Assembly: GCF_001017435.1 (NCBI RefSeq)
Contig: NZ_CP011371.1
Span: 4,464,001-4,528,000, forward strand
Origin: Caldimonas brevitalea
GTDB lineage: Bacteria > Pseudomonadota > Gammaproteobacteria > Burkholderiales > Burkholderiaceae_C
Length of the DNA: 64,000 nt
Reading direction: 5' to 3'
How positions within the stretch are numbered: the first letter of the stretch is position 1; each line of letters starts with the position of its first letter. The notes below the pieces were generated by a model. It was not told where the DNA came from. It saw only the letters and a list, made by a program, of their open reading frames with translations, and searched no databases. Shown piece by piece: positions 29,904-49,349 of the stretch. Both the position numbers and the translations under genes were made by a program.

Positions 29904-29913
29904 GGAGTCTGCG

Positions 29914-30846: not shown

Positions 30847-30897
30847 GCAGCCGCCCGCCTGCCGCCCGACGGCGGCGGGCACCCGCGCCGCTCAGCC
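30841..30897. terminator. Nested inverted repeats between argF and methyltransferase gene
   Basis: Outer arms GGCTGAGC (30841-30848) and GCTCAGCC (30890-30897) enclose an inner GC-only stem GCCCGCC (30853-30859) / GGCGGGC (30874-30880). Each outer arm includes a stop codon of the convergent genes, both of which end GGC-TGA. No T run follows, so intrinsic termination is uncertain; an end-protecting hairpin for both messages is possible. Confidence 0.4.
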
Positions 30898-31665
30898 GCG
30901 CGCGCGGTACTCCGAGAAGATGCCCAGTTCGACGTGCCGCTCGACCTGCAGCAGTCCGTTGCCGGCGAGCGTGCGCAACACGTCGGCCGGGGCCGCGCAG
31001 GCCTCGATGGTGTCCCAGTAGTAACGCCACAGCATCGGTGTGGCCGGCGCACGCGAGACGACCCGGGCCAGCAAAGGCACGACGCCCCGCATGTAGGCCT
31101 TCAGCAGCGCATTCGACAGCCGCCCCTCGGCGCGCGTGATCTCGAGGATCAGCAGCGTGCCACCCGGGCGCAGCACACGCCGGAATTCGGCAAACGCCGC
31201 CGACAGGTCGGCGATGTGCCGCAAGGCGTAGCCCATGACGATGAAATCGGCACTCGCATCGGGCAGCGGGAGCGCTTCGGCGCGCCCCTCTCGGCACACC
31301 ACCTCGGGCGGCAATGCCGCCTCGCGCATCATCCCCGGGCTCGGGTCGACGCCCACCAGGCGCTGGGGCTGCCCGGTCACCCGCAGGATCTCGCGCGACA
31401 CCAGCCCGGTCCCCATGCCGACGTCCACCACGTCCATGCCCGGCCGCAAGCCGGCCCGCTGCAAGGCCTGGCGGCGGTACCAGGAGCCGGTGCCGAGACC
31501 GAGGATACGTTCAAGCCGGTTGTAATCGACCGCGGTGTCGTCGAAGGTGCGGCGCAGAAAACGCTCGCGCTCCTCGCTGTCGCCGCTCGGGTAATAGTCG
31601 GGCAGTGGCCGGTGCGGCAGGTGCACCAGCGAGTCTGAAGCCGGGGGGGTGGGGGGGTTCGCCAT
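30892..31665 (-). CDS. Class I SAM-dependent methyltransferase (UbiE-like)
   Basis: Methyltransferase of 257 residues with the UbiE/COQ5-type arrangement: VDVGMGTGLVSREIL (SAM motif I), VGVDPSPGMM, YALRHIADLSAAFAEFRRVLRPGGTLLILEI. The N-terminal extension is Pro-rich and encoded by C7-A-C7 just behind the start codon. It is divergent from the aryl polyene operon, 301 bases away, and may supply a methyl group to the product, as methylated head groups are common there; alternatively it is an unrelated quinone-type enzyme. The ATG at 31665 is the first before the Pro-rich stretch. Confidence 0.85.
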   Translation of the reverse strand: MANPPTPPASDSLVHLPHRPLPDYYPSGDSEERERFLRRTFDDTAVDYNRLERILGLGTGSWYRRQALQRAGLRPGMDVVDVGMGTGLVSREILRVTGQPQRLVGVDPSPGMMREAALPPEVVCREGRAEALPLPDASADFIVMGYALRHIADLSAAFAEFRRVLRPGGTLLILEITRAEGRLSNALLKAYMRGVVPLLARVVSRAPATPMLWRYYWDTIEACAAPADVLRTLAGNGLLQVERHVELGIFSEYRARG

Positions 31666-31715
31666 GGCGCTCGCTCCGTGGGCGCACGGTCTCGGCGCCC
31701 TTTTTGAGCCGGTCA

Positions 31716-31786
31716 TGGTACTCCTTCACATTCCCCCTAAGGAGCGGGAGATCCTGAATGGTAGCGTTTGGTAAACTCCTTCAGAT
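31716..31786. promoter_or_regulatory. Imperfect direct repeats in the control region of the polyene operon
   Basis: TGGTACTCCTTCACAT (31716-31731) and TGGTAAACTCCTTCAGAT (31769-31786) share TGGTA and ACTCCTTCA and start 53 bases apart, about five helical turns. Between them AAGGAG (31739-31744) forms inverted repeats with both CTCCTT cores. They lie in the 301-base gap between the divergent UbiE-like gene and the ACP gene, so they are candidate sites for a shared regulator. I see no convincing -35/-10 pair. Nothing else is recognisable in the gap. Confidence 0.4.
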
Positions 31787-32236: not shown

Positions 32237-32238
32237 CC

Positions 32239-32877
32239 ATGGAAACGCGCGTCCGCTACCTGCTGGCAGCGGCTGGTGGCTTGGCCTATGCGGTCGTGTC
32301 ACACCAGTTGATGACGCGCGCGCCAAACCAACCGCTGGTACCGCTGGCGCTGTTGGGGCCGTTTCTGATCTGGTGGATCATCAGCCTGTGGCGCAACGGC
32401 AAGATCGCCTCCGCCTGCGCCGTCGGCGCCTTTGCGGCGGGCCTCGCGGCGCTGGTCGGCTGGGGCAATGCGGTATCGCCGCAAACCTTGTACCTCGGGC
32501 AGCATGCCGGCATCCACCTCGGCCTCGGCCTGCTGTTCGGCAGTTCGCTGCGCCCCGGGCAGCAACCCTTCATCACCCGGATTGCCGAGCGGGTGCACCG
32601 CACCTTCCCACCGGTCATGCGGGTCTACACCCGGCAGGTGACGGTGGCGTGGACGGTCTATTTCGTCGTGATGGCCTCGCTGTCGCTGCTGCTGTACTGC
32701 TACGCGCCGTTCTCCGCCTGGTCGGTGTTCGCCAACTTGCTCACGCCTTTGTCGCTGGCCGCGATGTTCGCCGGCGAACACGTCCTGCGCTACCGGTTGC
32801 ATCCCGACTTCGAACGGGTCGGCATCACCGAAGCGATCCGGGCCTACACCACCTACCAAGACGACGGGCGCACGTGA
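32239..32877 (+). CDS. COG4648 family membrane protein of the aryl polyene cluster
   Basis: Integral membrane protein of 212 residues with about six hydrophobic segments (for example PLALLGPFLIWWIISLW, ACAVGAFAAGLAALVGW, VYFVVMASLSLLLYCYA). It resembles the predicted membrane proteins of COG4648 that occur in most aryl polyene clusters; their biochemical role is unknown. Its stop overlaps the GTG of the ligase gene by four bases (GTGA), so expression is coupled. It probably helps place the synthesis or export machinery at the inner membrane. Confidence 0.82.
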   Translation: METRVRYLLAAAGGLAYAVVSHQLMTRAPNQPLVPLALLGPFLIWWIISLWRNGKIASACAVGAFAAGLAALVGWGNAVSPQTLYLGQHAGIHLGLGLLFGSSLRPGQQPFITRIAERVHRTFPPVMRVYTRQVTVAWTVYFVVMASLSLLLYCYAPFSAWSVFANLLTPLSLAAMFAGEHVLRYRLHPDFERVGITEAIRAYTTYQDDGRT

Positions 32878-34259
32878 GCCGACACGACCTTCCCTTGCTT
32901 GGCGGCGACACCCTCGACGCGCCGCTCGCCTGGCGCCGTGGGCGCCCGATCAGCCGCGCCCACTATTTGCAGGACCTGCGCCGGGTCGCCGCCGCGCTGC
33001 CGGCGGCAGGCCCGGTGCTCGCGATGACCGGCGACCGTTACCGCTTTGCGCTGGCGCTCGGCGCGGCCCTGTTGCGCGGGCAAAGCAATCTGCTGCCGCC
33101 CAACCACACACCGGACACGGTCGCCCGGCTGCGTGACCTGTTTCCCGGCGCCTACGCCTTGGTCGAAAGCGGCGCGCCGGCCGTCGCACTGCCCCAGCAC
33201 ACCTTCCCCGAGCTGCTCGAGCCTGGCGACGTGCCCGGCGCCGTGCCGGCAAGCACCCCGGCCATCGCCGCCGACGCCGAGGTGGCCCACGTGCTCACCT
33301 CCGGCTCGACCGGCGCCCCCAGCGTGCACCCGAAACGCTGGGATCTCCTGGTCGAAAACATCAGTGCCGAAGCCGAACGCATCGCCGAACACCTGGGCCG
33401 GCCCGACCTGCGCGGTGTCACGCTAGTCGGCACGGTGCCGCCGCATCACATGTACGGCTTCGAATCGACCGTGCTGATCGCGATGCTCGGGGGCGCCGCC
33501 TTCACCGCCGAGCGGCCCTTCTTCCCGGCCGACATCGTGCAGGTGCTGCAACAGCTGCCGGGGCCGCGGGTGCTGGTCACCACACCGTTCCACCTGAAAA
33601 CCCTGCTCGACGCCGGCCTCGACCTGCCCCCCGTCGACCTGTGCGTGTGTGCCACCGCCCCGCTGTCGCCGCAGATGGCGGCGCGGGCCGAAGCCGCGCT
33701 CGGTGCGCCCTTGATGGAGATCTACGGCTGCACGGAAGCCGGCCAGGTCGCCACGCGCCGCACCACCGAGGGGCCGGAATGGCGCACCTACCGTGGCCTG
33801 ACGCTGCGCGGCGACGCCGAACGGGCGGTGGTGCAAGGCGGCCACGTGCCCCAACCGACGCCGTTGGCCGACGTGCTCGAGGTCGTGTCGCCGACACGCT
33901 TCCGGCTGCTCGGCCGCTCCAACGACCTGATCAACGTGGCCGGCAAGCGCAGTTCGCTGTCCCACCTCAACTACCACCTCAACAGCATCCCCGGCGTGCT
34001 CGACGGTGCCTTCTGGCTGCCGCCGGCGGCGCAGGTCGAGGATGTCGCGCGGCTGGTGGCCTTCGTGGTCGCCCCCGGCGTGACGCGCGAGCGCTTGCTG
34101 GCGGAACTGCGGCAGCGGGTCGACCCGGTGCTGCTGCCACGGCGCATCGTCCACCTCGACGCCTTGCCGCGCGACCCGACCGGCAAGCTGCCCGCGTCGC
34201 GGCTGGCCGCGCTGGCCGACAAATGGCTGGCGCGCGACACGGCGGCCGAACGCGCCTGA
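32874..34259 (+). CDS. ANL-superfamily aryl:ACP ligase of the aryl polyene cluster
   Basis: Adenylate-forming enzyme of 461 residues expected to activate a hydroxybenzoate starter with ATP and load it onto the ACP. Motifs seen: LTSGSTGAPSVHPKRW (phosphate loop), EIYGCTEAGQVATRR, GRSNDLINVAGKR, and DPTGKLPASRL carrying the C-terminal catalytic lysine. It is shorter than acyl-CoA synthetases of about 550 residues, as in the cluster-type ligases. The GTG at 32874 overlaps the preceding stop. The nearby chorismatase gene suggests 3- or 4-hydroxybenzoate as substrate. Confidence 0.9.
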   Translation: MSRHDLPLLGGDTLDAPLAWRRGRPISRAHYLQDLRRVAAALPAAGPVLAMTGDRYRFALALGAALLRGQSNLLPPNHTPDTVARLRDLFPGAYALVESGAPAVALPQHTFPELLEPGDVPGAVPASTPAIAADAEVAHVLTSGSTGAPSVHPKRWDLLVENISAEAERIAEHLGRPDLRGVTLVGTVPPHHMYGFESTVLIAMLGGAAFTAERPFFPADIVQVLQQLPGPRVLVTTPFHLKTLLDAGLDLPPVDLCVCATAPLSPQMAARAEAALGAPLMEIYGCTEAGQVATRRTTEGPEWRTYRGLTLRGDAERAVVQGGHVPQPTPLADVLEVVSPTRFRLLGRSNDLINVAGKRSSLSHLNYHLNSIPGVLDGAFWLPPAAQVEDVARLVAFVVAPGVTRERLLAELRQRVDPVLLPRRIVHLDALPRDPTGKLPASRLAALADKWLARDTAAERA

Positions 34260-34276
34260 CCCAGAACCGCCGCATC

Positions 34277-34597
34277 ATGCCCAGCGTCTCCCTGCGCATT
34301 CCTGTCGACCACCCCAGCTTCGTCGGCCACTTTCCGGGCCAGCCGCTGCTGCCGGGCGTGGTGCTGCTCGCCGAAGTGCTGGAAGCCCTGCTGGGCGATC
34401 CGGAGATCGCCGTCCGGCTCGGCTCGGCGCCCCGCCTGGGCGCGGTGAAATTCCTCGCCCCTGTCGGCCCGGGGGCCGGCTTGCGCGTTGTCTGGGAGGC
34501 CGCCGGCGCGCGCGTGCGTTTCGACGTGCTGCGTCTCGATACCGACGTCGAGACGCCCGCGGCCACCGGACACTTCGAAGCTGGAGCAACACGCTGA
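34277..34597 (+). CDS. FabZ/ApeI-like hotdog dehydratase
   Basis: Single hotdog-domain protein of 106 residues, like the ApeI-type 3-hydroxyacyl-ACP dehydratases. The catalytic histidine lies in HPSFVGHFPGQPLLPGVVLLAEV, the FabZ signature, about residues 11-33. It would remove water from the 3-hydroxyacyl-ACP in each cycle together with the ApeP-like dehydratase at 42438. The ATG at 34277 is 17 bases after the ligase stop; its stop overlaps the acyltransferase start (TGATG). Shorter than FabZ of about 150 residues. Confidence 0.85.
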   Translation: MPSVSLRIPVDHPSFVGHFPGQPLLPGVVLLAEVLEALLGDPEIAVRLGSAPRLGAVKFLAPVGPGAGLRVVWEAAGARVRFDVLRLDTDVETPAATGHFEAGATR

Positions 34598-35640
34598 TGA
34601 ACGGCAAGGCCGCCGCACGGGGGACTGATACCCCCGCCGACTCCCCCGCCGCCGCCGACTGGACGGCGCAGCGCGAGCGCAGCAACCTGCTCACGCTGCG
34701 GCTGATGGCCTGGATCGCCACCACGCTGGGCCGGCGTGTGGCGCGCGCCGTGCTGCATCCGATCACGCTGTATTTCCTGTGCTTCGGCGGCGCCGCCACG
34801 CGCCACTCGGCCGCCTATCTCGAGCGCGTGCTCGGGCGCCCACCCCGCTGGGCCGAGCGCTACCGCCACATTCACCATTTCGCCGCCACGGTGCTCGACC
34901 GCGTCTACCTGCTGCAGGAACGCTTCGACAACTTCCAGTTCGAGGTGCGCGGGGCCGAGCACCTCGACCCGGTGCTGGCCGAGGGCCAGGGTGCCCTGCT
35001 GGTCGGCGGCCACCTCGGCAGCTTCGAGGCGCTGCGCGCGCTCGGGCAGGGGCGCCATGGCGTGCGCGTGGCGATGCTGATGTACGAAGACAACGCGCGC
35101 CTCATCAACGCCACCTTGCACGCCATCGCGCCGAAGGCCGAGCTGCACACCATCGCCCTCGGCCGGCTCGACGCGATGCTGACGCTGCAGCAGTGGCTCG
35201 ACGGCGGCGGTGTGGCCGGGCTGCTGGCTGACCGCACCTTGCCGGCGCAAGGACAGCGCTCGGGCGCCCAGTCGCTGCCGTTCCTGGGAGACCCCGCGGC
35301 CTTCTCGGACGGCCCGTTCCGACTCGCCGCGCTGCTGCGCCGCCCCATCGTGTTCATGGCCGGCCTCTACCACGGCGGCAACCGCTACGAACTGCGCTTC
35401 CTGCCGGTGGCCGACTTCCGCGACCGGCCGCGCGGCGCCGCACTCGACGCCGCCGTGCGCGACGCGATGGCGCGCTACGCCTCGATCCTCGAAGGCCTGT
35501 GCCGCGAATCGCCCTACAACTGGTTCAATTTCTTCGATTTCTGGGCGCCCCCCGCGGCCCCCGCCCCGACCCATGCCCCAACTGCCTCCCCTGCCCCGGC
35601 TGAAGACGGCGACCACGACGCCGAACGCCTTGCCGCCTGA
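34597..35640 (+). CDS. LpxL-like lipid acyltransferase of the cluster
   Basis: Membrane-associated acyltransferase of 347 residues in the LpxL/HtrB family. The active-site HX4E-type motif is VGGHLGSFEALRAL in the middle of the protein. LADRTLPAQGQ and GDPAAFSDGPFRLAALLRRPIVFMAGLYHGGN are typical later blocks. In aryl polyene clusters such enzymes are thought to transfer the polyene or a fatty acid to a lipid carrier. The last 30 residues are Ala/Pro-rich and overlap the start of the LolA-like gene by 68 bases. Confidence 0.85.
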   Translation: MNGKAAARGTDTPADSPAAADWTAQRERSNLLTLRLMAWIATTLGRRVARAVLHPITLYFLCFGGAATRHSAAYLERVLGRPPRWAERYRHIHHFAATVLDRVYLLQERFDNFQFEVRGAEHLDPVLAEGQGALLVGGHLGSFEALRALGQGRHGVRVAMLMYEDNARLINATLHAIAPKAELHTIALGRLDAMLTLQQWLDGGGVAGLLADRTLPAQGQRSGAQSLPFLGDPAAFSDGPFRLAALLRRPIVFMAGLYHGGNRYELRFLPVADFRDRPRGAALDAAVRDAMARYASILEGLCRESPYNWFNFFDFWAPPAAPAPTHAPTASPAPAEDGDHDAERLAA

Positions 35641-36244
35641 GCGCAGCCGCCGTGCCGCCACGCTGCTGGCAGCGCTGTGCCTGGGCCTCGGCTTGGCGCT
35701 CGGCTCACCAGCGGCACGCGCGTCCACCCCGATCAACCTCGAGCAGTTGATGCGCACGCTGGCCGAGGTGAAGGCCGGCGAAGCCACCTTCACCGAACGC
35801 CGGCAGGTCGGCGAACTGCAGCAGACGCTGACGTCGTCGGGCCGTTTGTCGTTCAGCGCGCCCGACACCTTCGTGCGCGAAACCCTCAAGCCGCGGCCAG
35901 ACCGGCTGGCGGTCACCGGCAACACCCTGACGATGAGCCAGGGCAGCCGCAGCCGCACCGTCGCCCTCGACAGCGCCCCTGAGGCGCAGGCCATCGTGGA
36001 GGCCGTGCGCGGCACGCTGACCGGCAACGCAGCGGTGCTGCAGCGCCACTTCACGACCGAGTTGGCCGGCACGCTGGACCGCTGGACGCTCGAACTGATC
36101 CCGAAGGAAGCACGTTTGCGCGGTCAGGTCGCACGCGTCACCGTGGCGGGCCAGCAGGCGGTGGTGCGCGAGTTGCGCATCCTGCTGAGCGACGGCGACC
36201 TGTCGGTGATGACGATCGAACCCGTGTCCCCGGGCGCGCGATGA
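35573..36244 (+). CDS. LolA-like outer membrane carrier of the cluster
   Basis: Periplasmic protein of 223 residues resembling LolA, the lipoprotein chaperone, and the LolA-like member of aryl polyene clusters. A signal-type segment RRAATLLAALCLGLGLALGSPAARA lies at about residues 24-48. The mature part shows INLEQLMRTLAEVKAGEATFTERRQV, typical of the family. It likely shuttles the hydrophobic product or its lipid conjugate to the outer membrane. The first ATG at 35573 gives a long n-region before the signal; a downstream non-ATG start is possible. The stop overlaps the exporter ATG (ATGA). Confidence 0.82.
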   Translation: MPQLPPLPRLKTATTTPNALPPERSRRAATLLAALCLGLGLALGSPAARASTPINLEQLMRTLAEVKAGEATFTERRQVGELQQTLTSSGRLSFSAPDTFVRETLKPRPDRLAVTGNTLTMSQGSRSRTVALDSAPEAQAIVEAVRGTLTGNAAVLQRHFTTELAGTLDRWTLELIPKEARLRGQVARVTVAGQQAVVRELRILLSDGDLSVMTIEPVSPGAR

Positions 36245-38625
36245 CACGCGCCCTGTGGCGCCGCCCGGCCCTCTGGGCCTGGCTCGCGTTGATGCTGCTG
36301 GGCGCGCTGGTCGCCAGCCGCACGCACTACGTCGCCGACCTGTCGGCCTTTTTGCCGCAGGCGCCCACCGGCGAACAGCGGGTGCTGCTCGAGCAGCTCA
36401 AGCGCGGCGGCACCGCCCGGGTGATGTTGATCGGCCTGCGCGGCGGTGACGCCGCGGTGCGTGCCGAAGGGTCGCGCACGCTGGCCGCGGCGCTGCGCCA
36501 GAGCGGCGAATTCGACGCCGTGCACAACGGCGACAACGCGGCCTGGGAAGCGGCCGGCCAGTTCCTGGTCGATCACCGCTATCTGCTCAGCCCCGCCGTC
36601 GATGCCCACCGCTTCACCGTGGACGGCCTGCGCGAAGGCCTGGCCGACACGGTTTCCCTGCTCGGCACCCCGACCGGCAGCCTGATCAAGCCGCTGCTGT
36701 GGCGCGACCCGACCGGCGAGACGGTGCGCATGGCCGAAGCCATGCTGCCGCCGGCCGCGCCGCGGGTCGAAAACGGCGTCTGGGTCTCGCGCACCGAGCC
36801 ACGCGCCGTGCTGGTAGCCACCACCCGCGCCGAAGGCGCCGACCTGGACGGGCAGGAACGTGCCATCGCCGCCGTGCGCAAGGCCCATGCGCCGCTCGCC
36901 GCGCGCGGGCTGCAGCTCGAACTGTCCGGCCCCGGTGTGATGGGGGTGCAGTCGCGCAGCCAGATCCAGGGCGAAGTCGAACGCCTGGCCACGCTCGGCA
37001 CGGTCGCCATGCTGGTGCTGCTGGTGGTGGCCTTCGGCTCGCTGCGCGCGGTCGGCATCGCGCTGTTACCGGTCGCCAGCGGCGTGTTGGCCGGCATCGC
37101 CGCGGTCAGCCTCGGTTTCGGTCAGGTGCACGGCATCACGCTCGGCTTCGGCACCACCTTGATCGGCGAGGCGGTCGACTACGCAATCTACTACCTGATC
37201 CAGGCCCGCCCGGCGCCCGGCGCGGCCCCCGGCACCGGGCACCTGGGCTGGCGGCAGCAGAGCTGGCCGACCGTGCGCCTGGGCCTGTGGACCTCCATCG
37301 CCGGCTTTGCCGCGCTGGCGTTCTCCGGCTTCACGGGGCTGGCCCAGTTGGGCGTGTTCTCGATCGCCGGGCTGGTTGCAGCGGTGCTGACCACCCGCTA
37401 TCTGCTGCCGGCGCTGGCGCCGGACGGCGCTGCCGGCACCGGCCTGCGGCGCCCGCTGGGCCGCGCCGTCGCCACCCTGACGCTGTGGCTGCCGCGCCTG
37501 CGCTGGCCGCTGGCGGCCTTGTGCGCCGCGGCAGCGCTCGCGCTCGCGTTGCAACCCAGCGCCTGGCGCGGCACCCTGGCTGCGCTCAGCCCCGTCACCC
37601 CCGCCACGCTGCAGCTCGACGCCTCGCTGCGCGCCGATCTGGGCGCGCTCGAAGCCGGCACGCTGGTCGCCGTCGAGGCGCCGGACGAAGCACAAGCCCT
37701 GCTGCGCGCCGAACAGGCCGGGGCACGCCTGGCGGCATTGGTCGAGCAAGGCCGGCTGCTCGGCTACAGCTCGCCCGCCCAACTGTTGCCCAGCCCCGCG
37801 ACCCAGGCGGCGCGCCAGGCCGCATTGCCCGACGCGCCGACCTTGCGCGCCCGGCTGGCCGAAGCGACCGAGGGCGGCCCGCTGCCGGCCGCACGGCTGC
37901 AGCCATTCATCGACGACGTGCAGGCCCAGCGCCGCGCCCCGTTGGTCACCCGCGCCGACCTCGCGGCAACGCCGCTCGCCAGCGCCCTGCAGGCCCAGCT
38001 GCTGCCCGGCCACGACGGTGGCCCGTGGATCGCGCTGCTGAGCTTGCAACTGCCCGCTCAGGGCGCGGCGACGGCGCAAGACTTGAGGGCCGCCCTGGCC
38101 GGCCTGCCCGACACCCGGGCGGTGCAGATCCAGGCCGAGTTGGACGCCCTCTACACCCACTACCTGCACGAGGCCACCTGGCAAGCCGCGCTGGGCGCCG
38201 TGGCCGTGCTGCTGCTGCTGTGGGCACATCTGCGCTCGGCCCGCCGCCTGCTGCAGGTGGCGCTGCCGCTGGCCGGCAGCGTGCTGCTGGTGCTCGCCGC
38301 GCTGTCGCTGGCCGGCACGGCCCTCGGGGTGCTGCACCTGGTCGGCCTGCTGCTGGTGGTCGCCGTCGGCTCGAACTACGCCTTGTTCTTCGATTACCTG
38401 CGCCATCACGGGCAGCCCGACACCGAAACCCTCGCCTCGCTGGCAATGGCCAACCTGACCACCGTGGTCTCGTTCGCGCTGCTCGCCAGCTCCGGCGTGC
38501 CGGCCCTGTCGGGCATCGGCGAGGTGGTTGCGCCCGGCGCCCTGCTGGCCCTCGTGCTCGCGGCGGCCTTCGTTGCCGCGCCGGGTGCCGTGGGCGCGAG
38601 CCGCCCACTGGCGGGACGCTCCTGA
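36241..38625 (+). CDS. MMPL/RND-type exporter of the cluster
   Basis: Inner membrane transporter of 794 residues in the MMPL branch of the RND superfamily. It shows two similar halves: an N-terminal helix, a large periplasmic loop, then a block of hydrophobic helices (ATLGTVAMLVLLVVAFGSL, VGIALLPVASGVLAGIAAVSLGF), repeated in the second half (AALGAVAVLLLLWAHL, LLLVVAVGSNYALFFDYLRHHG). It would flip or export the polyene-lipid, with the LolA-like carrier upstream. Its ATG overlaps the preceding stop. A 186-base gap follows before the deacetylase gene. Confidence 0.88.
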   Translation: MTRALWRRPALWAWLALMLLGALVASRTHYVADLSAFLPQAPTGEQRVLLEQLKRGGTARVMLIGLRGGDAAVRAEGSRTLAAALRQSGEFDAVHNGDNAAWEAAGQFLVDHRYLLSPAVDAHRFTVDGLREGLADTVSLLGTPTGSLIKPLLWRDPTGETVRMAEAMLPPAAPRVENGVWVSRTEPRAVLVATTRAEGADLDGQERAIAAVRKAHAPLAARGLQLELSGPGVMGVQSRSQIQGEVERLATLGTVAMLVLLVVAFGSLRAVGIALLPVASGVLAGIAAVSLGFGQVHGITLGFGTTLIGEAVDYAIYYLIQARPAPGAAPGTGHLGWRQQSWPTVRLGLWTSIAGFAALAFSGFTGLAQLGVFSIAGLVAAVLTTRYLLPALAPDGAAGTGLRRPLGRAVATLTLWLPRLRWPLAALCAAAALALALQPSAWRGTLAALSPVTPATLQLDASLRADLGALEAGTLVAVEAPDEAQALLRAEQAGARLAALVEQGRLLGYSSPAQLLPSPATQAARQAALPDAPTLRARLAEATEGGPLPAARLQPFIDDVQAQRRAPLVTRADLAATPLASALQAQLLPGHDGGPWIALLSLQLPAQGAATAQDLRAALAGLPDTRAVQIQAELDALYTHYLHEATWQAALGAVAVLLLLWAHLRSARRLLQVALPLAGSVLLVLAALSLAGTALGVLHLVGLLLVVAVGSNYALFFDYLRHHGQPDTETLASLAMANLTTVVSFALLASSGVPALSGIGEVVAPGALLALVLAAAFVAAPGAVGASRPLAGRS

Positions 38626-41626: not shown

Positions 41627-42441
41627 GCGCGGTCAGCGTCAAGCTGCTGGGGATCGGGCTGATCGGTCCCGGGCTCACCGGCTGGGCGGCGGCGCGTGAG
41701 GTGCTGGCGGGGCAGACGGCCCATCTCAGCGCGCCCACCGCGGTGCCCTCGCCCCAGCGGCTGCCGGCCGCCGAGCGGCGCCGCGCCGGTGTGGCGATCA
41801 AGGTCGCCATGGCGGCAGCGGAAGAAGCCTGCGCCGACGCCGGGCTGGCGCCGCAGACGCTGCCCACCGTGTTCACCTCGTCGAGCGGCGACGGTGTCAA
41901 CTGCCACACACTGTGCGAGGCCCTGGCCGGCAGCGACCGCCTGATCTCGCCCACCCGTTTCACCAACTCGGTCCACAACGCGGCCGCCGGCTATTGGCAC
42001 ATCGGGGTGGCCGGGCAGGCGCCTTCGACCAGCTTGTGCGCTTACGACGCCAGCTTCGGCGCGGGACTGGTGGAGGCCGTCACCCAGGTGCGGCAGCATG
42101 CGACGCCGCTGCTGCTGGTGGCCAGCGACACACCCTATCCGGAGCCCTTGCAGTCGGCGCGGCCCTTGCCCGACAGCTTCGGGCTCGGCCTGGTGTTCGG
42201 GCCTGCCGACGGCGCCGGCCTCACGCTGAGCGTCAACCTCGTGCCGGCCAACCCCGCCACCCGACCGACACCTTGCGCCGACCCCGGGCTCGAAGCGATG
42301 CGCCGTGCGCTGCCGAGCGCCCGCGCCCTGCCGCTGCTGGAGGCGGTCGCACGTGGCGGTGCCGTGGAGCAGGTGGTGTTGCTGGAGTACCAGGCCAGCT
42401 TGCACCTGCGCGTCGAAATCTCCGGTCAAGGCCCGACATGA
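41623..42441 (+). CDS. Beta-ketoacyl synthase chain-length factor (ApeC-like)
   Basis: Truncated ketosynthase homologue of 272 residues, matching the chain-length-factor partners of aryl polyene synthases. The nucleophile elbow TACSSS of active synthases is replaced by SLCAYDASFGAGL, in which the only Cys is one position off the expected site, and the two catalytic histidine motifs are absent. The family is thought to form a heterodimer with the upstream ketosynthase and set chain length. Overlaps by ATGA on both sides. Confidence 0.85.
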   Translation: MSAVSVKLLGIGLIGPGLTGWAAAREVLAGQTAHLSAPTAVPSPQRLPAAERRRAGVAIKVAMAAAEEACADAGLAPQTLPTVFTSSSGDGVNCHTLCEALAGSDRLISPTRFTNSVHNAAAGYWHIGVAGQAPSTSLCAYDASFGAGLVEAVTQVRQHATPLLLVASDTPYPEPLQSARPLPDSFGLGLVFGPADGAGLTLSVNLVPANPATRPTPCADPGLEAMRRALPSARALPLLEAVARGGAVEQVVLLEYQASLHLRVEISGQGPT

Positions 42442-42917
42442 CCCAAGGCCCGAACGCGCCGACACTCGACCACCGCGGTATCGAGGCGCTGATCCCCCAC
42501 CAGGGCCGCATGTGCTTGCTCGACGGTCTGCTGAGCTGGGACGCCGAGCGCATCGAGTGCCGTGCGCTCAGCCACCTCGACGCCGACAACCCCTTGCGCA
42601 GCGCCAGCGGCCTGTTGGCCACCGCGGCGATCGAATACGCCGCCCAGGCGATGGCACTGCATGGCTCGCTGCTGGCCCAGGCCGATGGTGGCGCTGCGAG
42701 CCCCGGCTTCCTGGCCAGTGCGCGTGGCGTGCAGTTGCACCGTCTGCGCCTCGACGACCTCGACGGCCCTCTGCAGGTGCAGGCCCTCCGCCAGGCCGGC
42801 GATGCGCGCCAGATCCTCTATGCCTTCACGGTGAGCGACGCCACCGGCGCCCCCGTGGCCGAGGGCCGCGCCGCGGTCGTGCTGGACACGCCGCTGGCAG
42901 CGCCTGTGGCCCCCTGA
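42438..42917 (+). CDS. ApeP-like hotdog 3-hydroxyacyl-ACP dehydratase
   Basis: Hotdog-fold protein of 159 residues. It starts MTQGPNAPTLDHRGIEALIPHQGRMCLLD, where the conserved IPHxG(R)MxLLD block with its active-site His is the family signature. It is distinct from the FabZ-like protein at 34277, so the cluster has two dehydratases, as aryl polyene systems usually do. The ATG overlaps the stop of the chain-length factor; 28 bases separate it from the ketoreductase. Confidence 0.85.
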   Translation: MTQGPNAPTLDHRGIEALIPHQGRMCLLDGLLSWDAERIECRALSHLDADNPLRSASGLLATAAIEYAAQAMALHGSLLAQADGGAASPGFLASARGVQLHRLRLDDLDGPLQVQALRQAGDARQILYAFTVSDATGAPVAEGRAAVVLDTPLAAPVAP

Positions 42918-42945
42918 AGGCCATCCCCACCGCCAGGACACTGCG

Positions 42946-43683: not shown

Positions 43684-43823
43684 TGCGCCGCGCTTCGGCA
43701 CGCCAGCGGCCGAAGCACTCCTGTTCTTGACGCTGCAGCCGGGGGGCCGCCCTCGCGCCCCCGGTGCACGGCACAAAACACACGATACCGACAACATCTT
43801 CAACGACCGGAGGGGTCTCTCAC

Positions 43824-44405
43824 ATGCATCAAAAAACACCGTCGCGCCGACTGCTGGGTCCGGCCTTCCTGCTCGCCGCCACGCTGGGCGCCGGCTGTGC
43901 CAACCAGCCGTCGAACACGTCTGCGGCGCCCGCCGACAGTGGTGCGACCACGCCGGCGGGGAAGCCCGCCTCGGGCGCTCAGGCGACCGTCAAGCCCGGC
44001 ACGCCGGCGGCGGCGGCAGGCAAGGCTGCTGCGGGGATGAACAGCCAGGGAGAGGTGGTCGACTCGTCCAAGGTCGAAGCCGGCCAGGGGCGCAAGGTCA
44101 AGGGTTTGAACGACTGGGAAGGCGAGATCACCGGCAAGCCCGCGCCGCGCAGCAAGTTCACCAAGCTGCAAATCGGCATGACGATGCGCCAGGCGGTCAA
44201 CATCGCCGGCCAGCCGAGCGACGAAGGCGCCTACATCACCGGCAAGGCCTGGATTCCGTTCTATTTCGGCGGCGACCGTCACCGCTACGAGATGGTCTAC
44301 AAGGGCCAGGGACGGCTGGTGTTCGCCGGCGGATCGCTGGGCGACTACACCGGCGGCAACCTGATCTGGATCATCCACAACGCCAACGAGCCGGGCACCC
44401 GCTGA
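43824..44405 (+). CDS. Predicted lipoprotein, weakly BamE/SmpA-like, end of polyene operon
   Basis: Lipoprotein of 193 residues, not recognised with confidence. The signal peptide ends in the lipobox LGAGC, so it is probably anchored in the outer membrane. A disordered Ala/Pro/Thr/Gly-rich linker follows to about residue 75. The C-terminal domain (FTKLQIGMTMRQAVNIAGQP, then WIPFYFGGDRHRYEMVYKGQGRLVF) looks like the BamE/SmpA fold, where IGMT and V-x-x-x-G-x-P are recurrent. It is 140 bases after the ketoreductase on the same strand and may help anchor the pigment or its carrier. AGGGGTCTCTCAC before the ATG is a fair ribosome site. Confidence 0.75.
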   Translation: MHQKTPSRRLLGPAFLLAATLGAGCANQPSNTSAAPADSGATTPAGKPASGAQATVKPGTPAAAAGKAAAGMNSQGEVVDSSKVEAGQGRKVKGLNDWEGEITGKPAPRSKFTKLQIGMTMRQAVNIAGQPSDEGAYITGKAWIPFYFGGDRHRYEMVYKGQGRLVFAGGSLGDYTGGNLIWIIHNANEPGTR

Positions 44406-44480: not shown

Positions 44481-45251
44481 CTAGGGTTGGAACGGCGGAC
44501 GCCGGCGCACCCGGCGCAGCGCCAGCAGTGGCAAGCGCAGCAAGAACTCGAGCATCAGCCGGGTGTGCATCCAGGTCAGCAGCACGTTGTCGCGTCCGTA
44601 GCGGAAATGCGAAACGCCGCCCTCCTCGGCCTTCAGGTACTTGACCGGCGCGTCGAGGTTGACCGGTTTCACGCCCCGCCACGCCAGGCGCACCACCGCT
44701 TCGGTGTCGAAGTCGAAGCGGCGCATCCACGGCTGGCCCTGCATCACCGCGATCAACTCGGCGATCGGATAGACACGAAAGCCGTAGAGCGAATCGCCGA
44801 TGCCGGCCCCCAGCGTTTCGAGGTTGGTCCACCAGTTGGAAACACGCCGCCCGCGCACGCGCAGCAAGGGCGCGCTGGCGTCGAAGACCGGACGCCCCAG
44901 CACCATCGTGTCGGGCCGCTCGGCCGAGGCCTGCATGAAGTGGGGAATCAGCTCGGCCGGATGTTGCCCGTCCGAATCCATCGTCAACGCGTGGGTGTAG
45001 CCCTCGGCCAGGGCGGCGTGCAGCCCGAGCAGCACGGCCGCGCCCTTGCCGCGGTTTTGCGGCAGCAGCAGCACGCGCAGCCGCTGGTCTTCGGCCGCCA
45101 GGCGTTGCAGCCCTTCGGCGGTGCCGTCGGTGCTGCCGTCGACCACTACCCACACGTCGTGCCACTGGGCGAGCGCCGCGCGCACGGTTTCGTAGACCTT
45201 GGGGCCGGTGTTGTAGCTGGGGATCAGCACCAGGTGCCGGGCGGCGGTCAT
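44481..45251 (-). CDS. Family 2 glycosyltransferase of the cluster
   Basis: GT-A fold glycosyltransferase of 256 residues. It begins MTAARHLVLIPSYNTGPKVYET and has VVDGSTDGTAEGL and the metal-binding MDSDGQHPAEL, both typical of family 2. No membrane helices are obvious apart from the hydrophobic C-terminal stretch MLEFLLRLPLLAL. It may add a sugar to the polyene or make a dolichol-type glycolipid carrier. Its ATG overlaps the acyltransferase stop by four bases. Last gene of the leftward operon, convergent with the lipoprotein gene. Confidence 0.88.
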   Translation of the reverse strand: MTAARHLVLIPSYNTGPKVYETVRAALAQWHDVWVVVDGSTDGTAEGLQRLAAEDQRLRVLLLPQNRGKGAAVLLGLHAALAEGYTHALTMDSDGQHPAELIPHFMQASAERPDTMVLGRPVFDASAPLLRVRGRRVSNWWTNLETLGAGIGDSLYGFRVYPIAELIAVMQGQPWMRRFDFDTEAVVRLAWRGVKPVNLDAPVKYLKAEEGGVSHFRYGRDNVLLTWMHTRLMLEFLLRLPLLALRRVRRRPPFQP

Positions 45252-46033
45252 TGCGTCACCTCCTCCGTGCTGTGCACCGCGGTGCGAGCGCCTTCGGACG
45301 GCCGCACCACGCTCAGCTCCCGCCTGAAATAGTCCTCCAGCTCGGCCAGGGCGGCTGCATGGTCGGCACGCGGCTCGAAGCGCTGCCCCAGCCGCACCTT
45401 GAAGACGATGGGCAACTGCGGCAGGCGCCAGATCGGCCAGCCCTTGCCGAGGTAGGGCGTGTCGGTTTCGATGAACACGGTCTGGATCGGGACGCGGGCC
45501 TTGTGGGCGATCATCGTGATGCCGGGGCGGAAGGCGTTCAGCGGCCGCCGCTCGGTGCGCGTGCCCTCGGGGAACAACACCAGCTGGCCGCCCTCCTGCA
45601 GGCTCGCGATGGAGCGGCGCACCAGTTTGCGCGGCGAATCGTTGCGGATGTAGCGCGCCAGGCGCGCCCCCGCTCCCAGGAACACATTGCGCATCAGCGA
45701 GGCCTTCATGATGCAGACGCTGCGCGGCAAGCGGGCCACGATCAGCAGCGCATCGAGCATGGTGGGGTGGTTGGCGGCGATGATCAAGCCGCCCGGCTCG
45801 TCCCGCAAGGCGTCGAGCGTGCTCGCGTCGATGCGCATCAGGCCGCTGGCCCGCGCGCAGGCCCAGTACCAGCGATAGGCGTAGGCGATGGCGGCGCGGC
45901 CGATCACCCGGCCACGTTCGCGCGGCAACAACGGATACAGCACGAACGCCACCGTGTTCCAGCTCAGCGACAGCAGGCCCAGGCACAGCAGCAGCAGGTA
46001 CAGCCAGGCAGTGAGCAGCACGTGCATGAACAT
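45248..46033 (-). CDS. PlsC-type 1-acylglycerol-3-phosphate acyltransferase of the cluster
   Basis: Acyltransferase of 261 residues with an N-terminal membrane helix (LLTAWLYLLLLCLGLLSLSW). Motif I is ANHPTMLD (HX4D) and motif III is LFPEGTRTE. IRNDSPRKLVRRSI and AFRPGITMIAHKARVPIQTVF follow. Such acyltransferases are regular in aryl polyene clusters, where they are believed to attach the polyene to a lipid or to a glycerol-phosphate acceptor. With the LpxL-like protein there are two acyltransferases in the locus. Coupled by ATGA overlap to the glycosyltransferase. Confidence 0.9.
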   Translation of the reverse strand: MFMHVLLTAWLYLLLLCLGLLSLSWNTVAFVLYPLLPRERGRVIGRAAIAYAYRWYWACARASGLMRIDASTLDALRDEPGGLIIAANHPTMLDALLIVARLPRSVCIMKASLMRNVFLGAGARLARYIRNDSPRKLVRRSIASLQEGGQLVLFPEGTRTERRPLNAFRPGITMIAHKARVPIQTVFIETDTPYLGKGWPIWRLPQLPIVFKVRLGQRFEPRADHAAALAELEDYFRRELSVVRPSEGARTAVHSTEEVTQ

Positions 46034-46051
46034 CGCAGCCAGGACCCGCGG

Positions 46052-46963
46052 TCAGTCGTCGACCAGGACCATCTCGCCCGAGGTGGCGAACACCCACGAC
46101 ACGGCGATGCCGGCCGTGAAGTGCTGGCGCCGCTGCACCAGCGGGCTGTCTTCGAAGGTGGCGCCGTCGAGGTGGTCGTAACGCACGAAGGCGCCCATCC
46201 AGGTGCGCTCGAAGCGCCGCGACACGGACGCCAGCGCCTGCCAGCCGGCGAAGCCACCGCTGGCGCGATAGGCCGGGCGTTGTGCCGTGGCGTCCGCGGC
46301 GTCGACGCCGTAGAAGTGTTGGTGGTAGTGGCGCGTCGCGAACATCGGGCCGCCCAGCAGGCCCACGTGCCAGCCGCCGGCCACACCGTCCAGGTCGAGG
46401 TTCAGGTTGGGGGTGAACACGGTGCCGATGCTGCGCGGCGAGCGCTCGAGCGTGATGGCGGTGCGCACCGGCAGGCGCAGGTCCAGACGCGCGCCGCGCG
46501 ACCCGGAGCGCCACAGCGTGACGTTCAGATTGGGACCGATCTCGACCGTGGCGGGCAGGTCGTCCATGCCGGCCCGGGCACCGTCGTCGCGGTTGCGACT
46601 CGGCGGTGAACCGTTGACGCTCAGATCGATCTCGACATTGCGCGCATCCAGCAGCACGGCTCGCGCGCCCTCGCGATCCGCGCGCAGCCATTCGCCACGG
46701 TAGGCCACGTACGGCACCGGCAACACGTGGTTGCTGCGCTCGGCCGCCCCCCGGTAGTCGGGCAGGCTCAGCCCGCCGACGCCCAGGCCCAGTTCCCACA
46801 GGGGCCGCGCGACGCGCCGGCGGTCGGGCTGGGGGCTGGTGGTATCAGATGACACGACCACATCGGACGGCGCCACCGGTTCGGCCGTCGGTGCCGCCCA
46901 CGTGGCACCCGTCCAGCCGAGGCCCAGCGCCAGCGCCAGGGGGAGCAAAGGATTGCGGTTCAT
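46052..46963 (-). CDS. MipA/OmpV family outer membrane protein
   Basis: Outer membrane beta-barrel protein of 303 residues. A signal peptide (LLPLALALGLGWTGATWA) precedes a Pro-rich stretch and then ELGLGVGGLSLPDYRGAAERSNHVLPVPYVAYRG, the MipA/OmpV signature. The C-terminus has alternating beta strands, ending GIAVSWVFATSGEMVLVDD. MipA was described as a scaffold for MltA and PBP1B, but many homologues have other roles. Here it overlaps the chorismatase gene by four bases, so it belongs to the leftward pigment operon and may provide the outer membrane site. Confidence 0.88.
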   Translation of the reverse strand: MNRNPLLPLALALGLGWTGATWAAPTAEPVAPSDVVVSSDTTSPQPDRRRVARPLWELGLGVGGLSLPDYRGAAERSNHVLPVPYVAYRGEWLRADREGARAVLLDARNVEIDLSVNGSPPSRNRDDGARAGMDDLPATVEIGPNLNVTLWRSGSRGARLDLRLPVRTAITLERSPRSIGTVFTPNLNLDLDGVAGGWHVGLLGGPMFATRHYHQHFYGVDAADATAQRPAYRASGGFAGWQALASVSRRFERTWMGAFVRYDHLDGATFEDSPLVQRRQHFTAGIAVSWVFATSGEMVLVDD

Positions 46964-48024
46964 CGGCGGCCCCCTGCCCCGGTGTCGATCACGCTCTGGG
47001 CTTCGATCTCGACCAGCAGGTCGGCGCGGCAGATGTCGGCGCGCAGGTAGACGGCGTCGCGTGCCGCGGGCGACGCCGGGCCGACGCGCTGCTCGAAGGC
47101 CGTGCGCACGGCCTCGAGGTCGGCTCGGTCGCGCACATAGACGGTGTAGTCGAGCCGGTCGAGCCGGTGCCCGGACGCGGCGTCAACCGCCCGGGTATGC
47201 GGCGCGGCGGCTTGCAGCACCGCCTCGATGTTGTCGAGCGTCTCGATGGTCTGACGTCGCACGTCACCCAGATGCAGCGTGGCATGCCCGACGATGCTCG
47301 CGGTGCCGGAAATGAACAGCGCCTCGCGGTCGCCGCCAAGCGGCGCCACCGCGGCACGTGAGAAGGTGGGGCTGCGCGGGCCGTATTCCTTGGGATAGTG
47401 GTAGGCGCTCACCTGACGGGGATTTTCGATCGCCTGCGGCGGCACCTGGCCGGCCAGGAAATGCACGGTCAGCGGGCCCCCTTCGGTGCCCAGCGCGCAG
47501 GCCGCCGGCGCACCGGCAAAAGCGGGGCGACGTGCCGCCAGGAAGGCCTGCTGGCGCCCGACGTTGAAGTGCCGGTAACGCTCCAGGCCGTCGCACGGCT
47601 GGTTGATGCCGGCGACGTAATTCCACAGCCTCAGCAAATGCGGGCAGCCGCTGTTCTCGAGCAGTTCGAACAGCTCGGCGTAAGCCCGCAGTGCGGCGGC
47701 CTGCAGCCCGCCCGGCTCGCGCCGGTCGTCGATGCAGGCGGTCCCGTAGAGCCACTGCCCGTTGGTGCTGTAGCTCAAGCAACCGCGCTGGAAGTGACGC
47801 ACCTCGCCCGTCACCCACCAGGCTTCGCCCACCGGTCGGGCGGGCAGCAGCAAGGCCGGCGCGGCCTGGTCGACCCCTTCCTGCGGGAGGTGCCAGCGCT
47901 GCGACAACAATCCGTTCGTCGCATTGGCGCGACCGGGCTGGGCGGTGTCGCCATCGGCACGCAGGCGCCGGAACGACAGGGGATGCGCGGCCGACACGGC
48001 CGACTCGGACAATACGGCCGTCAC
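46960..48024 (-). CDS. XanB2/FkbO-type chorismatase
   Basis: Chorismatase-like protein of 354 residues in the trimeric RidA-like fold family (FkbO, Hyg5, XanB2). The characteristic blocks are LWNYVAGINQPCDGLERYRHF, SAYHYPKEYGPRSPTFSRA and FISGTASIVGHATLHLGDV. XanB2 of Xanthomonas converts chorismate to 3- and 4-hydroxybenzoate for xanthomonadin and ubiquinone. Which isomer this protein makes cannot be told here. I chose the GTG at 48024, overlapping the halogenase stop by four bases (GTGA), giving 354 residues; the in-frame ATG upstream at 48273 would overlap that gene by 250 bases. Confidence 0.9.
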   Translation of the reverse strand: MTAVLSESAVSAAHPLSFRRLRADGDTAQPGRANATNGLLSQRWHLPQEGVDQAAPALLLPARPVGEAWWVTGEVRHFQRGCLSYSTNGQWLYGTACIDDRREPGGLQAAALRAYAELFELLENSGCPHLLRLWNYVAGINQPCDGLERYRHFNVGRQQAFLAARRPAFAGAPAACALGTEGGPLTVHFLAGQVPPQAIENPRQVSAYHYPKEYGPRSPTFSRAAVAPLGGDREALFISGTASIVGHATLHLGDVRRQTIETLDNIEAVLQAAAPHTRAVDAASGHRLDRLDYTVYVRDRADLEAVRTAFEQRVGPASPAARDAVYLRADICRADLLVEIEAQSVIDTGAGGRR

Positions 48025-49349
48025 GAACTGCTCACCTCGACGTCGCGGATGTTCATCCTGCGCTGCTTCCAGGCGCGGAAGGTGCGCCCGAAATTGCGCA
48101 GCGATTCCATGTAGTACAGGCCCTTGAGCACCCGCAGCGCGCCCCAGATCGGCGTCTTGCCATAGATGTCGCCGGCCAGCAGCGACAGCAGCGCCTCCTT
48201 GACCCGCCACGGATTGGCCGGGTACATGAAGAACTCGCGCATCGTCGGGTTGGTGACGCGGAAGATGAACCACGAGAATTCGCGCGGCCCGAATCGCATC
48301 ATCGACTCGAAGCGTTTGCGCGCGGCCGCCGCTTCACGCGGGCGGTCCAGCGTGGTGGTGACCACCTCCACGCCGGCAAAGGCGCTTTGCATCGCGAGGT
48401 AGACGCCGGACGAGAACACCGGGTCGATGAAGGCGAAGGCGTCGCCCAGCATCATGTAACGCTCGCCGGTGCAATGGCTGGCGCTGTAGGAATAGTTGCC
48501 GGTGGCGTGCACCTGGTCGTCGACCAGCTCCGCGTCTTTCAGGCGGTCGGCCAGCTCGGGGCTCATCGCGATGGTGTCGCGGAAGAACTCGACCAGCGGC
48601 TTCTGGCGCGACTTCAGGTAGTAGGGCCAGCAGACCGCCCCGACGCTGGTGGTGCCGTCGGCGAGCGGAATGAACCAGAACCAGCCGTGCGGAAACCACA
48701 AGATGCTGATGTTGCCTTCGAGCTTGCCCTCGAGCCGGCGCGCGCCGCGGAAGTGCCCGAACAGCGCCGAGCTGTTGTGCTTGGGGTTCTTCTGCTTGCA
48801 CTTGAAGTGGTTGGCCAACAGCGTGTCGCGGCCCGAAGCGTCGACGAGGAAGCGGGTGCGCCAGGTCTGGCGCGCGCCGTCGTCGAGTTCCACCAGCACC
48901 GTGGCACCGTCGTCGTCGAAGCTCACATCGCGCACGCGATGGCCTTCGAGCGTGCGGGCGCCTGTTTTCGTCGCGTGGCGGAACAGCAGTTCATCCAGTT
49001 CCGAACGGCGGACCTGCCAGGCGTACGGCATGGATTTGTCCCAGGCGTCGCCAAATTCGAGGTAACTGCGGTGCTGGTGCTGCGGCGAGACGAATTCGAC
49101 CCCCCACTTGGCCATGCCGATGCGCTCCACCTCCTCGCGCAGCCCGAGCTGATCGAACAGCTGGACGTTGGCCGGCAGCAACGATTCGCCGATGTGGAAG
49201 CGCGGGTGGTGTGCCTTCTCCATCACCACGACGTCGCGGCCTTGGCGCGCCAACAAGGTGGCAAGGGTGGAACCGGCGGGGCCACCGCCAACGATGAGCA
49301 CCTCGCAGGACAAGGTGTCAGAAGGCTGGGATGCGGTGTTGGATTCCAT
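48021..49349 (-). CDS. Flavin-dependent halogenase-like oxidoreductase
   Basis: FAD-dependent enzyme of 442 residues in the tryptophan-halogenase-type superfamily. The FAD loop is VGGGPAGSTLATLLARQG (residues 20-38), GESLLP (54-59) is present, and the halogenase motif WFWFIP lies at 223-228. The lysine that hypohalous acid would use is K81 in GMAKWGVEF, in the position seen in phenol halogenases. GDAFAFIDPVFSSGV is the second FAD motif. Xanthomonadins are brominated aryl polyenes, so head-group halogenation is a reasonable proposal; a non-halogenating monooxygenase role is the alternative. First gene of the leftward operon; ATTCTA at 49433-49438 reads TAGAAT on the minus strand as a possible -10. 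Confidence 0.85.
   Translation of the reverse strand: MESNTASQPSDTLSCEVLIVGGGPAGSTLATLLARQGRDVVVMEKAHHPRFHIGESLLPANVQLFDQLGLREEVERIGMAKWGVEFVSPQHQHRSYLEFGDAWDKSMPYAWQVRRSELDELLFRHATKTGARTLEGHRVRDVSFDDDGATVLVELDDGARQTWRTRFLVDASGRDTLLANHFKCKQKNPKHNSSALFGHFRGARRLEGKLEGNISILWFPHGWFWFIPLADGTTSVGAVCWPYYLKSRQKPLVEFFRDTIAMSPELADRLKDAELVDDQVHATGNYSYSASHCTGERYMMLGDAFAFIDPVFSSGVYLAMQSAFAGVEVVTTTLDRPREAAAARKRFESMMRFGPREFSWFIFRVTNPTMREFFMYPANPWRVKEALLSLLAGDIYGKTPIWGALRVLKGLYYMESLRNFGRTFRAWKQRRMNIRDVEVSSS

What the first reader, a model, noticed from the sequence alone, without database searches (positions are those of the whole stretch)
30892..49349. Predicted halogenated aryl polyene (xanthomonadin-like) gene cluster in two convergent operons
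The rightward block provides an ACP, an ANL ligase, two hotdog dehydratases, ketosynthase plus chain-length factor, ketoreductase, LpxL-like acyltransferase, LolA-like carrier, MMPL exporter and accessory enzymes. The leftward block adds a halogenase-like flavoenzyme, a chorismatase, MipA, PlsC and a glycosyltransferase. Together these are all the roles of an aryl polyene pathway (family knowledge: ape clusters of Enterobacterales, pig/xan cluster of Xanthomonas). That combination in a Burkholderiales background, with a built-in starter supply and a halogenase, predicts a yellow membrane pigment. The product itself is inferred.
Basis: partly seen in the sequence, partly recalled or inferred. 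Interest (0 to 1): 0.75.

Follow-up and report, generated by a model that had tools for sequence, protein, structure and literature searches.

The report
Known xanthomonadin-type aryl polyene cluster
This is a complete, ordinary gene cluster for a yellow membrane pigment of the xanthomonadin/arcuflavin type, already listed and deleted as an aryl polyene cluster in this strain; the published growth defect of that deletion may come from neighbouring arginine genes that were removed with it.

Summary
Of 20 genes at 30,892-49,349, 17 have family matches fitting an aryl polyene pathway that starts from chorismatase-made 3-hydroxybenzoate; two more fit by synteny. The gene set and order match the Azoarcus arcuflavin genes and an annotated Azospirillum plasmid cluster. 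The genome size is that of Schlegelella brevitalea DSM 7029, whose 'BGC14 arylpolyene' (window 28,695-54,060) is published and was deleted in strain DC5. It is therefore already known. It is not unusual in Burkholderiales: at least 13 of 100 genomes have ketosynthase and chorismatase within about 20 kb. 'Halogenated' is not established: the flavoenzyme keeps family motifs, but arcuflavin, from clusters with the same gene, is non-brominated. Most clusters of the strain are called silent, so a visible pigment is uncertain. By-product: the DC5 deletion also removed argD, argF (the only ornithine carbamoyltransferase over the curated cut-off) and three kynurenine-pathway genes. That confounds the paper's attribution of DC5's poor growth to BGC14 loss.

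The parts
30892..31716 (-). UbiE-like SAM methyltransferase, divergent from the ACP operon; candidate O-methyltransferase of the aryl head
   Evidence: Pfam PF01209 E 1e-21; homologues in the stretches of related clusters L034, L035 (cut by the stretch end), L038, L043, L049 and L062, L063
31967..32236 (+). acyl carrier protein (ArcV-like)
   Evidence: PF00550 E 5e-7; PRK09184 E 4e-40; DSI attachment site at residue 43
32239..32877 (+). membrane protein of unknown family (ArcU position)
   Evidence: no Pfam/NCBIfam hit; conserved next to the ligase gene in relatives
32874..34259 (+). ANL-type AMP ligase (ArcT/ApeH role): loads hydroxybenzoate on the ACP
   Evidence: PF00501 E 2e-16; TSGSTG motif
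34277..34597 (+). hotdog dehydratase, ApeI/ArcS-like
   Evidence: PF07977 E 2e-4 and PF22818 ApeI-like E 7e-4, both below cut-off; FabZ E 1e-6, below cut-off; synteny
34597..35640 (+). LpxL-like acyltransferase (ArcR-like)
   Evidence: PF03279 E 6e-12; HLGSFE motif
35630..36244 (+). LolA-like periplasmic carrier (ArcQ-like)
   Evidence: PF19574 E 9e-15; flexirubin LolA2 E 5e-14, below cut-off
36241..38625 (+). MMPL/HpnN-like exporter (ArcP-like)
   Evidence: PF03176 E 6e-10; HpnN E 5e-19, below cut-off
38812..39687 (+). NodB-type polysaccharide deacetylase (ArcN-like)
   Evidence: PF01522 E 9e-28
39687..40442 (+). SAM methyltransferase (ArcM-like)
   Evidence: PF13649 E 2e-14
40442..41626 (+). 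ketosynthase (ArcK/ApeO-like)
   Evidence: PRK09185 E 1e-166 over cut-off; best solved match 6qsp_A E 7e-79; ACSSS
41623..42441 (+). half-length chain-length-factor-like partner (ArcJ, Lysobacter ORF16 role)
   Evidence: PF13723 E 1e-26; 7f28_A E 3e-9 and 6qsp_B E 2e-5
42438..42917 (+). second dehydratase (ArcI/ApeP position)
   Evidence: no Pfam/NCBIfam hit; homologues next to CLF in relatives, one annotated hydroxymyristoyl-ACP dehydratase in L062
42946..43683 (+). 3-ketoacyl-ACP reductase, FabG type (ArcH-like)
   Evidence: FabG PRK05653 E 2e-104
43824..44405 (+). putative lipoprotein (signal read by eye) at the operon junction; membership uncertain
   Evidence: no family hit; not found in the fetched stretches of the two congeneric clusters, found beside G083's cluster and the L062 cluster; 4 of 100 genomes, own included, in a search that scored at most 32 candidates per genome
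44481..45251 (-). family 2 glycosyltransferase (ArcE-like)
   Evidence: PF00535 E 2e-22
45248..46033 (-). PlsC-type acyltransferase (ArcD-like)
   Evidence: PF01553 E 3e-16; NHPTMLD, FPEGTR
46052..46963 (-). MipA/OmpV outer-membrane protein (ArcC-like)
   Evidence: PF06629 E 1e-45
46960..48024 (-). chorismatase (ArcB/XanB2-like): chorismate to 3-hydroxybenzoate
   Evidence: PF21168 E 7e-40; TIGR04444 E 3e-71, below its cut-off; solved relatives 5ag3, 5a3k, 4bps
48021..49349 (-). flavin-dependent halogenase-like protein (ArcA-like)
   Evidence: PF04820 E 7e-31; solved halogenases 5buk, 8gu0, 7fco at E below 1e-50; Lys81 and WxWxIP kept in the 13 close homologues aligned, own included

Best explanation
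A complete xanthomonadin/arcuflavin-type aryl polyene gene cluster of Schlegelella brevitalea DSM 7029, published as BGC14. The chorismatase makes 3-hydroxybenzoate from chorismate and the AMP ligase loads it on the ACP. The KS/half-CLF pair, ketoreductase and two dehydratases extend it with malonyl units, each reduced and dehydrated to a conjugated double bond. One or two methyltransferases methylate the ring hydroxyl. The two acyltransferases, glycosyltransferase, LolA-like protein, MMPL exporter and MipA attach the acid to a lipid and move it to the outer membrane. The flavoenzyme may halogenate the ring. Shown here: gene identities, intact motifs and conserved synteny. Inferred from Azoarcus, Lysobacter and E. 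coli work: every reaction step. Not shown: expression, product, halogenation.
For: Family matches; intact motifs; KS and CLF match chains A and B of 6qsp. Same gene set and order as Azoarcus arcA-E, H-K and M-V (arcO aside), where insertions in arcK or arcT make the strain colourless and ArcB yields 3-HBA. tblastn homologues (E up to 1e-3) of 19 of the 20 genes in Aquabacterium sp. A7-Y L035, of 15 of 20 in the congener G004, whose stretch starts inside the ligase gene, and of 19 of 20 in Azospirillum ramasamyi L062. Independently called arylpolyene BGC14.
Against: No product or expression data seen; most clusters of the strain are called silent. Among the 20 genes there is no thioesterase, second ACP or third KS-type gene as in E. 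coli (the second ACP is also missing from Xanthomonas clusters). The only PPTase-family (PF01648) matches, two, lie elsewhere in the genome.
Confidence: 0.93

Rival explanations
1. Same pathway, but the product is not halogenated: the flavoenzyme is idle under normal halide supply or does another flavin-dependent step.
For: Arcuflavin is described as a non-brominated aryl-heptaene although arcA is annotated as halogenase. No homologue lies in the stretches fetched around the cluster of the congener G004.
Against: Lys81 and WFW[FM]IP kept in the 13 close homologues aligned; closest solved proteins are named halogenases.
Confidence: 0.45
2. The polyene is esterified to a dialkylresorcinol, as in arcuflavin or flexirubin.
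For: Closest characterised gene set is arc, whose product is a hybrid.
Against: The PF08545 (KS III) matches in the genome are three, all over cut-off: one strong FabH-like hit, one weak hit beside a gene that reads by eye as a thiamine enzyme, and one weak hit inside a larger KS frame in published BGC11/12. darA and darB themselves were not searched for.
Confidence: 0.07
3. The cluster is defunct or never expressed in this strain.
For: Most of the strain's 17 clusters are called silent. No sigma-70-like promoter matched between 30,600 and 49,900, but shuffles give only 0.6, so this test has no power.
Against: The frames are open and the motifs checked are intact; gene order is kept in two congeners.
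Confidence: 0.2

Closest known systems
Arcuflavin (arc) clusters of Azoarcus sp. BH72 (PMC3949708)
   Same: Every enzyme role is shared: halogenase, chorismatase, MipA, PlsC, GT, KR, two DH, half-KS, KS, methyltransferase, deacetylase, exporter, LolA, acyltransferase, ligase, hypothetical ArcU, ACP, in the same order within each group.
   Different: arc is split over two loci, has arcF, arcG, arcL, arcO and a two-component pair (arcW, arcX), and its pigment contains a dialkylresorcinol from a third gene cluster. Here it is one locus, with a second methyltransferase and no assigned counterpart of those genes. Protein identity to arc was not measured (no named Azoarcus sequence was fetched).
Xanthomonadin (pig/xan) cluster of Xanthomonas and the yellow locus of Lysobacter enzymogenes (PMC3691225)
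   Same: 3-HBA-type chorismatase (XanB2/ORF5), KS plus half-CLF pair, two DH, ACP, KR, LolA and exporters; halogenase in Xanthomonas.
   Different: Lysobacter lacks the halogenase. Sequence comparison with Xanthomonas or Lysobacter was not made.
E. coli/Xenorhabdus ape clusters (PMC8253772)
   Same: KS/CLF pair (solved pair 6qsp, recalled to be ApeO:ApeC of Xenorhabdus), ligase role, ApeI-like DH below cut-off, KR.
   Different: ape starts from 4-HBA and has two ACPs and three KS-type genes; here there is one ACP, a KS/CLF pair, a chorismatase and a halogenase-like gene.
BGC14 'arylpolyene' of Schlegelella brevitalea DSM 7029 (PMC8302735)
   Same: It is this locus: same genome length, BGC14 = window 28,695-54,060.
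   Different: The published borders also take in argD, argF and three kynurenine-pathway genes.

Membership tests
aryl polyene BGC (APE family) | type II KS of the PRK09185 kind next to a half-length CLF | tested here: met
aryl polyene BGC (APE family) | ACP, AMP ligase, two dehydratases and KR in the same cluster | tested here: met
   the first dehydratase scores below cut-offs and the second has no family match, so both rest on synteny and homologues
aryl polyene BGC (APE family) | outer-membrane delivery set: LolA-like, MMPL exporter, acyltransferases, glycosyltransferase | tested here: met
aryl polyene BGC (APE family) | yellow polyene product lost on KS deletion | not testable with these tools
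   no expression or product data seen
xanthomonadin/arcuflavin subtype | FkbO/Hyg5/XanB2-type chorismatase in the cluster | tested here: met
   Pfam PF21168 over cut-off; NCBIfam TIGR04444 below its curated cut-off, 240 against 325 bits
xanthomonadin/arcuflavin subtype | chorismatase makes 3-HBA rather than a dihydrodiol | not testable with these tools
   PMC3949708 states that sequence alone does not predict this accurately; scores 183 and 179 bits to 5ag3/5a3k (recalled to be Hyg5) against 152 to FkbO 4bps
xanthomonadin (brominated) | halogenase-like gene with catalytic Lys and WxWxIP | tested here: met
   motif meaning recalled
xanthomonadin (brominated) | brominated product | not testable with these tools
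   counter-example arcuflavin
arcuflavin (polyene-dialkylresorcinol hybrid) | darA/darB genes in the genome | tested here: inconclusive
   no convincing DarB candidate among three KS III matches; darA not searched

The most novel reading that the evidence does not exclude
The 'halogenase' that travels with 3-HBA-type aryl polyene clusters (a homologue at 50% identity or more in 12 of 17 locus sets not chosen by it) has a conserved role other than halogenation in Betaproteobacteria, so its presence does not predict a halogenated pigment.
Probability: 0.2. Interest if true: 0.4.

Novelty: already known. Interest (0 to 1): 0.2.

Why it matters
The pathway itself adds a well-resolved example to a common pigment family. 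The more useful point concerns DSM 7029 as an expression host. The published 'BGC14' deletion runs from just after the argD start codon to just before the tryptophan dioxygenase stop codon, so it removes argD, argF and three kynurenine-pathway genes with the pigment genes. The growth defect that begins at DC5 therefore cannot yet be read as a function of the aryl polyene.

Tried and rejected
Tried: (1) Does the chorismatase replace UbiC for ubiquinone, as XanB2 supplies 4-HBA in Xanthomonas (passages)? Not needed in this genome: a UbiC-family gene is present at 3,374,453 (E 4e-18). Across the sample, 10 of 19 chorismatase genomes have a UbiC match, against 35 of 81 others, so there is no association overall. 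(2) Is there a dialkylresorcinol cluster? No convincing DarB candidate. (3) A named survey with the chorismatase gave only two loci; one of them, L033, is the same contig as G002:C1 by length (404,379) and position, so L033 and L035 overlap and count once. (4) Promoter scan: uninformative. (5) The ketoreductase reads TGASGELG, like the two congeners; of the 9 other relatives compared, 8 read TGGSG[AGS]IG and one TGASGAIG. I take it as a lineage variant, not damage. (6) Structure prediction was not run, because family and solved-structure matches already answered the question.

Counts and limits: I fetched 20 stretches from 16 of the 29 genomes with KS over cut-off, the own genome counted in the 29. 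G034, G085 and G092, which also have a chorismatase, were not fetched, nor were G005 and G006, which have no KS over cut-off. G085 is counted as linked from coordinates on a 6.4 kb contig. G092 has the two genes on different contigs and is not counted. The KS search scored at most 16 candidates per genome and the search at most 32, so their absences are not firm and the counts are lower bounds. The 17 locus sets of the halogenase count are the 16 genomes (G002 together with L033) and L034; the five without a homologue at 50% are G004, G035, G047, G013 (25%) and G026 (30%). L040 (G047) ends 1.7 kb after its chorismatase, so a missing halogenase there means little. L062 and L063 were found by the halogenase and are left out. 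In one search two distant rows (L051, L054) are left out of the 13.
Full report
What is there. Twenty genes lie between 30,892 and 49,349. A rightward block (31,967-44,405) and a leftward block (44,481-49,349) converge, and a methyltransferase gene diverges at the left end. Motifs of the ACP, KS, ligase, acyltransferases and deacetylase are intact. The first dehydratase scores below the curated cut-offs. The second dehydratase (42,438-42,917) and the 32,239-32,877 membrane protein match no family. All three are assigned from neighbours and relatives.

Which organism. The genome has 6,476,147 bases in one contig, exactly the wild-type size given for Schlegelella brevitalea DSM 7029 in PMC8302735 (section 7 read). 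That paper lists BGC14, arylpolyene, at 4,492,695-4,518,060, which is window 28,695-54,060. The first deleted base follows an ATG and the last precedes a TAG in the window, so the coordinates agree to the base. The stated sizes of DC4 and DC5 differ by 25,252 bp, 114 less than the 25,366 bp deletion, presumably a residual scar. Searches of the held library listed 20 papers each of 111, 107 and 26, and none of those listed names the product of this cluster by title or abstract start. Supplements were not open to me.

What it is like. The gene set and order match the arc genes of Azoarcus sp. BH72 (PMC3949708; I saw the abstract, part 1 of 2 of the results, the discussion and the list of supplements): arcA halogenase, arcB chorismatase, arcC MipA, arcD acyltransferase, arcE glycosyltransferase, arcH-K reductase, dehydratase, half-KS and KS, arcM methyltransferase, arcN deacetylase, arcP exporter, arcQ LolA, arcR acyltransferase, arcS dehydratase, arcT ligase, arcU, arcV ACP. 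Azoarcus with insertions in arcK or arcT is colourless, and ArcB makes 3-HBA. In Lysobacter the KS, ACP, KR and half-CLF partner are each needed for pigment, while its LolA-like gene is not (PMC3691225, sections 6 and 8 read). The KS and CLF match chains A and B of one solved entry, 6qsp; that this is the Xenorhabdus ApeO:ApeC pair is recalled. PMC8253772 (E. coli) was seen in passages only.

How common. Of 100 genomes sampled (own included), 29 have the KS family over its cut-off and 19 have the chorismatase domain. From the coordinates, 13 have both on one contig within about 20 kb: G000, G002, G004, G035, G040, G047, G057, G082, G083, G085, G087, G089, G095. G004's stretch starts inside the ligase gene, so its ACP end was not seen; its halogenase was looked for and not found. 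Both congeners carry other genes at the junction, including one that reads by eye as a TonB-type receptor (no family search). In a 31 kb stretch of a 645 kb plasmid, Azospirillum ramasamyi has 19 of the 20, without the chorismatase. Caballeronia sp. NK8 has 18 of 20 in its stretch, without the chorismatase and the lipoprotein, also on a plasmid.

Halogenation. The closest solved relatives of the flavoenzyme are named halogenases. Lys81 and WFW[FM]IP are kept in the 13 close homologues aligned, own included. The loop before the lysine is one residue shorter than in the four solved halogenases whose alignments were shown. Against this, arcuflavin is described as a non-brominated aryl-heptaene although arcA is annotated as halogenase. 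Of 17 locus sets not chosen by the halogenase, 12 carry a homologue at 50% identity or more. The gene therefore permits a halogenated pigment but does not prove one.

Mechanism. Chorismate to 3-HBA (chorismatase), activation and ACP loading (ligase), repeated malonyl extension by KS/CLF with KR and two dehydratases to a polyene acid, O-methylation, possible halogenation, then attachment to a lipid and transport to the outer membrane. Only gene identities are shown here; the steps are carried over from the systems cited. Phosphopantetheinylation would need one of two PF01648 genes found elsewhere. Because a UbiC-family gene is present, the chorismatase need not serve ubiquinone in this genome.

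A by-product worth telling. The interval deleted in DC5 also holds argD (acetylornithine transaminase), argF (ornithine carbamoyltransferase), arylformamidase, kynureninase and tryptophan 2,3-dioxygenase. With the curated ornithine carbamoyltransferase model TIGR00658, only this argF of three matches is over cut-off. With the broader Pfam domain PF02729 all three pass. One of the others reads as a degenerate relative without the STRTR and HCLP motifs; the other is presumably aspartate carbamoyltransferase, which was not tested. A second transaminase at 1,140,641 scores below the argD cut-off (378 against 410 bits) and might substitute; nadB is present. The paper reports that DC1 to DC4 grew slightly better than wild type and that defective growth starts at DC5, which it attributes to the sequential deletion of BGC14, 16 and 17 (section 8). 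'Arginine' and 'auxotroph' do not occur in its main text. The paper calls CYMG 'defined'; its composition was not found in the main text. I recall it as a rich, peptone-containing medium, in which case arginine would be partly supplied and the effect could be small. So this is a confound, not a demonstrated cause.

Verdict. A real, complete and well-formed cluster of a known kind, already published as such in this strain. Interest is low for the cluster itself; the confounded deletion is the point a specialist could use.

Noticed in passing
window 28,692-30,846 and 51,148-54,063: argD and argF on the left, and arylformamidase, kynureninase and tryptophan 2,3-dioxygenase on the right, lie inside the published BGC14 deletion (window 28,695-54,060). 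The growth defect of strain DC5 may come from their loss rather than from the pigment genes.
   Followed up: partly
G005:C1, G006:C36, G013:C34, G023:C1: These four genomes have a chorismatase not linked to an aryl polyene KS over cut-off and no UbiC-family match; there the chorismatase may supply 4-hydroxybenzoate for ubiquinone. G034, with an unlinked chorismatase and a UbiC match, is a counter-example.
   Followed up: partly
L062 (Azospirillum ramasamyi plasmid, 644,647 bp), L063 (Caballeronia sp. NK8 plasmid): Nearly complete aryl polyene clusters of this type, with no chorismatase in the 31 kb stretches read, sit on large secondary replicons.
   Followed up: partly
window 43,824-44,405: Putative lipoprotein with no family match at the operon junction. 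A homologue is near the cluster in G083 and L062 but was not found in the fetched stretches of the two congeneric clusters, whose junctions hold other genes.
   Followed up: partly
G002:C1:223,084-223,460: The chorismatase domain of Aquabacterium sp. A7-Y matches in two separate pieces, so the gene there looks frame-shifted or misassembled.
   Followed up: no
window 42,946-43,683: The ketoreductase has TGASGELG in the cofactor loop, shared with the two congeners among 11 relatives compared; the other nine read TG[GA]SG[AGS]IG.
   Followed up: no
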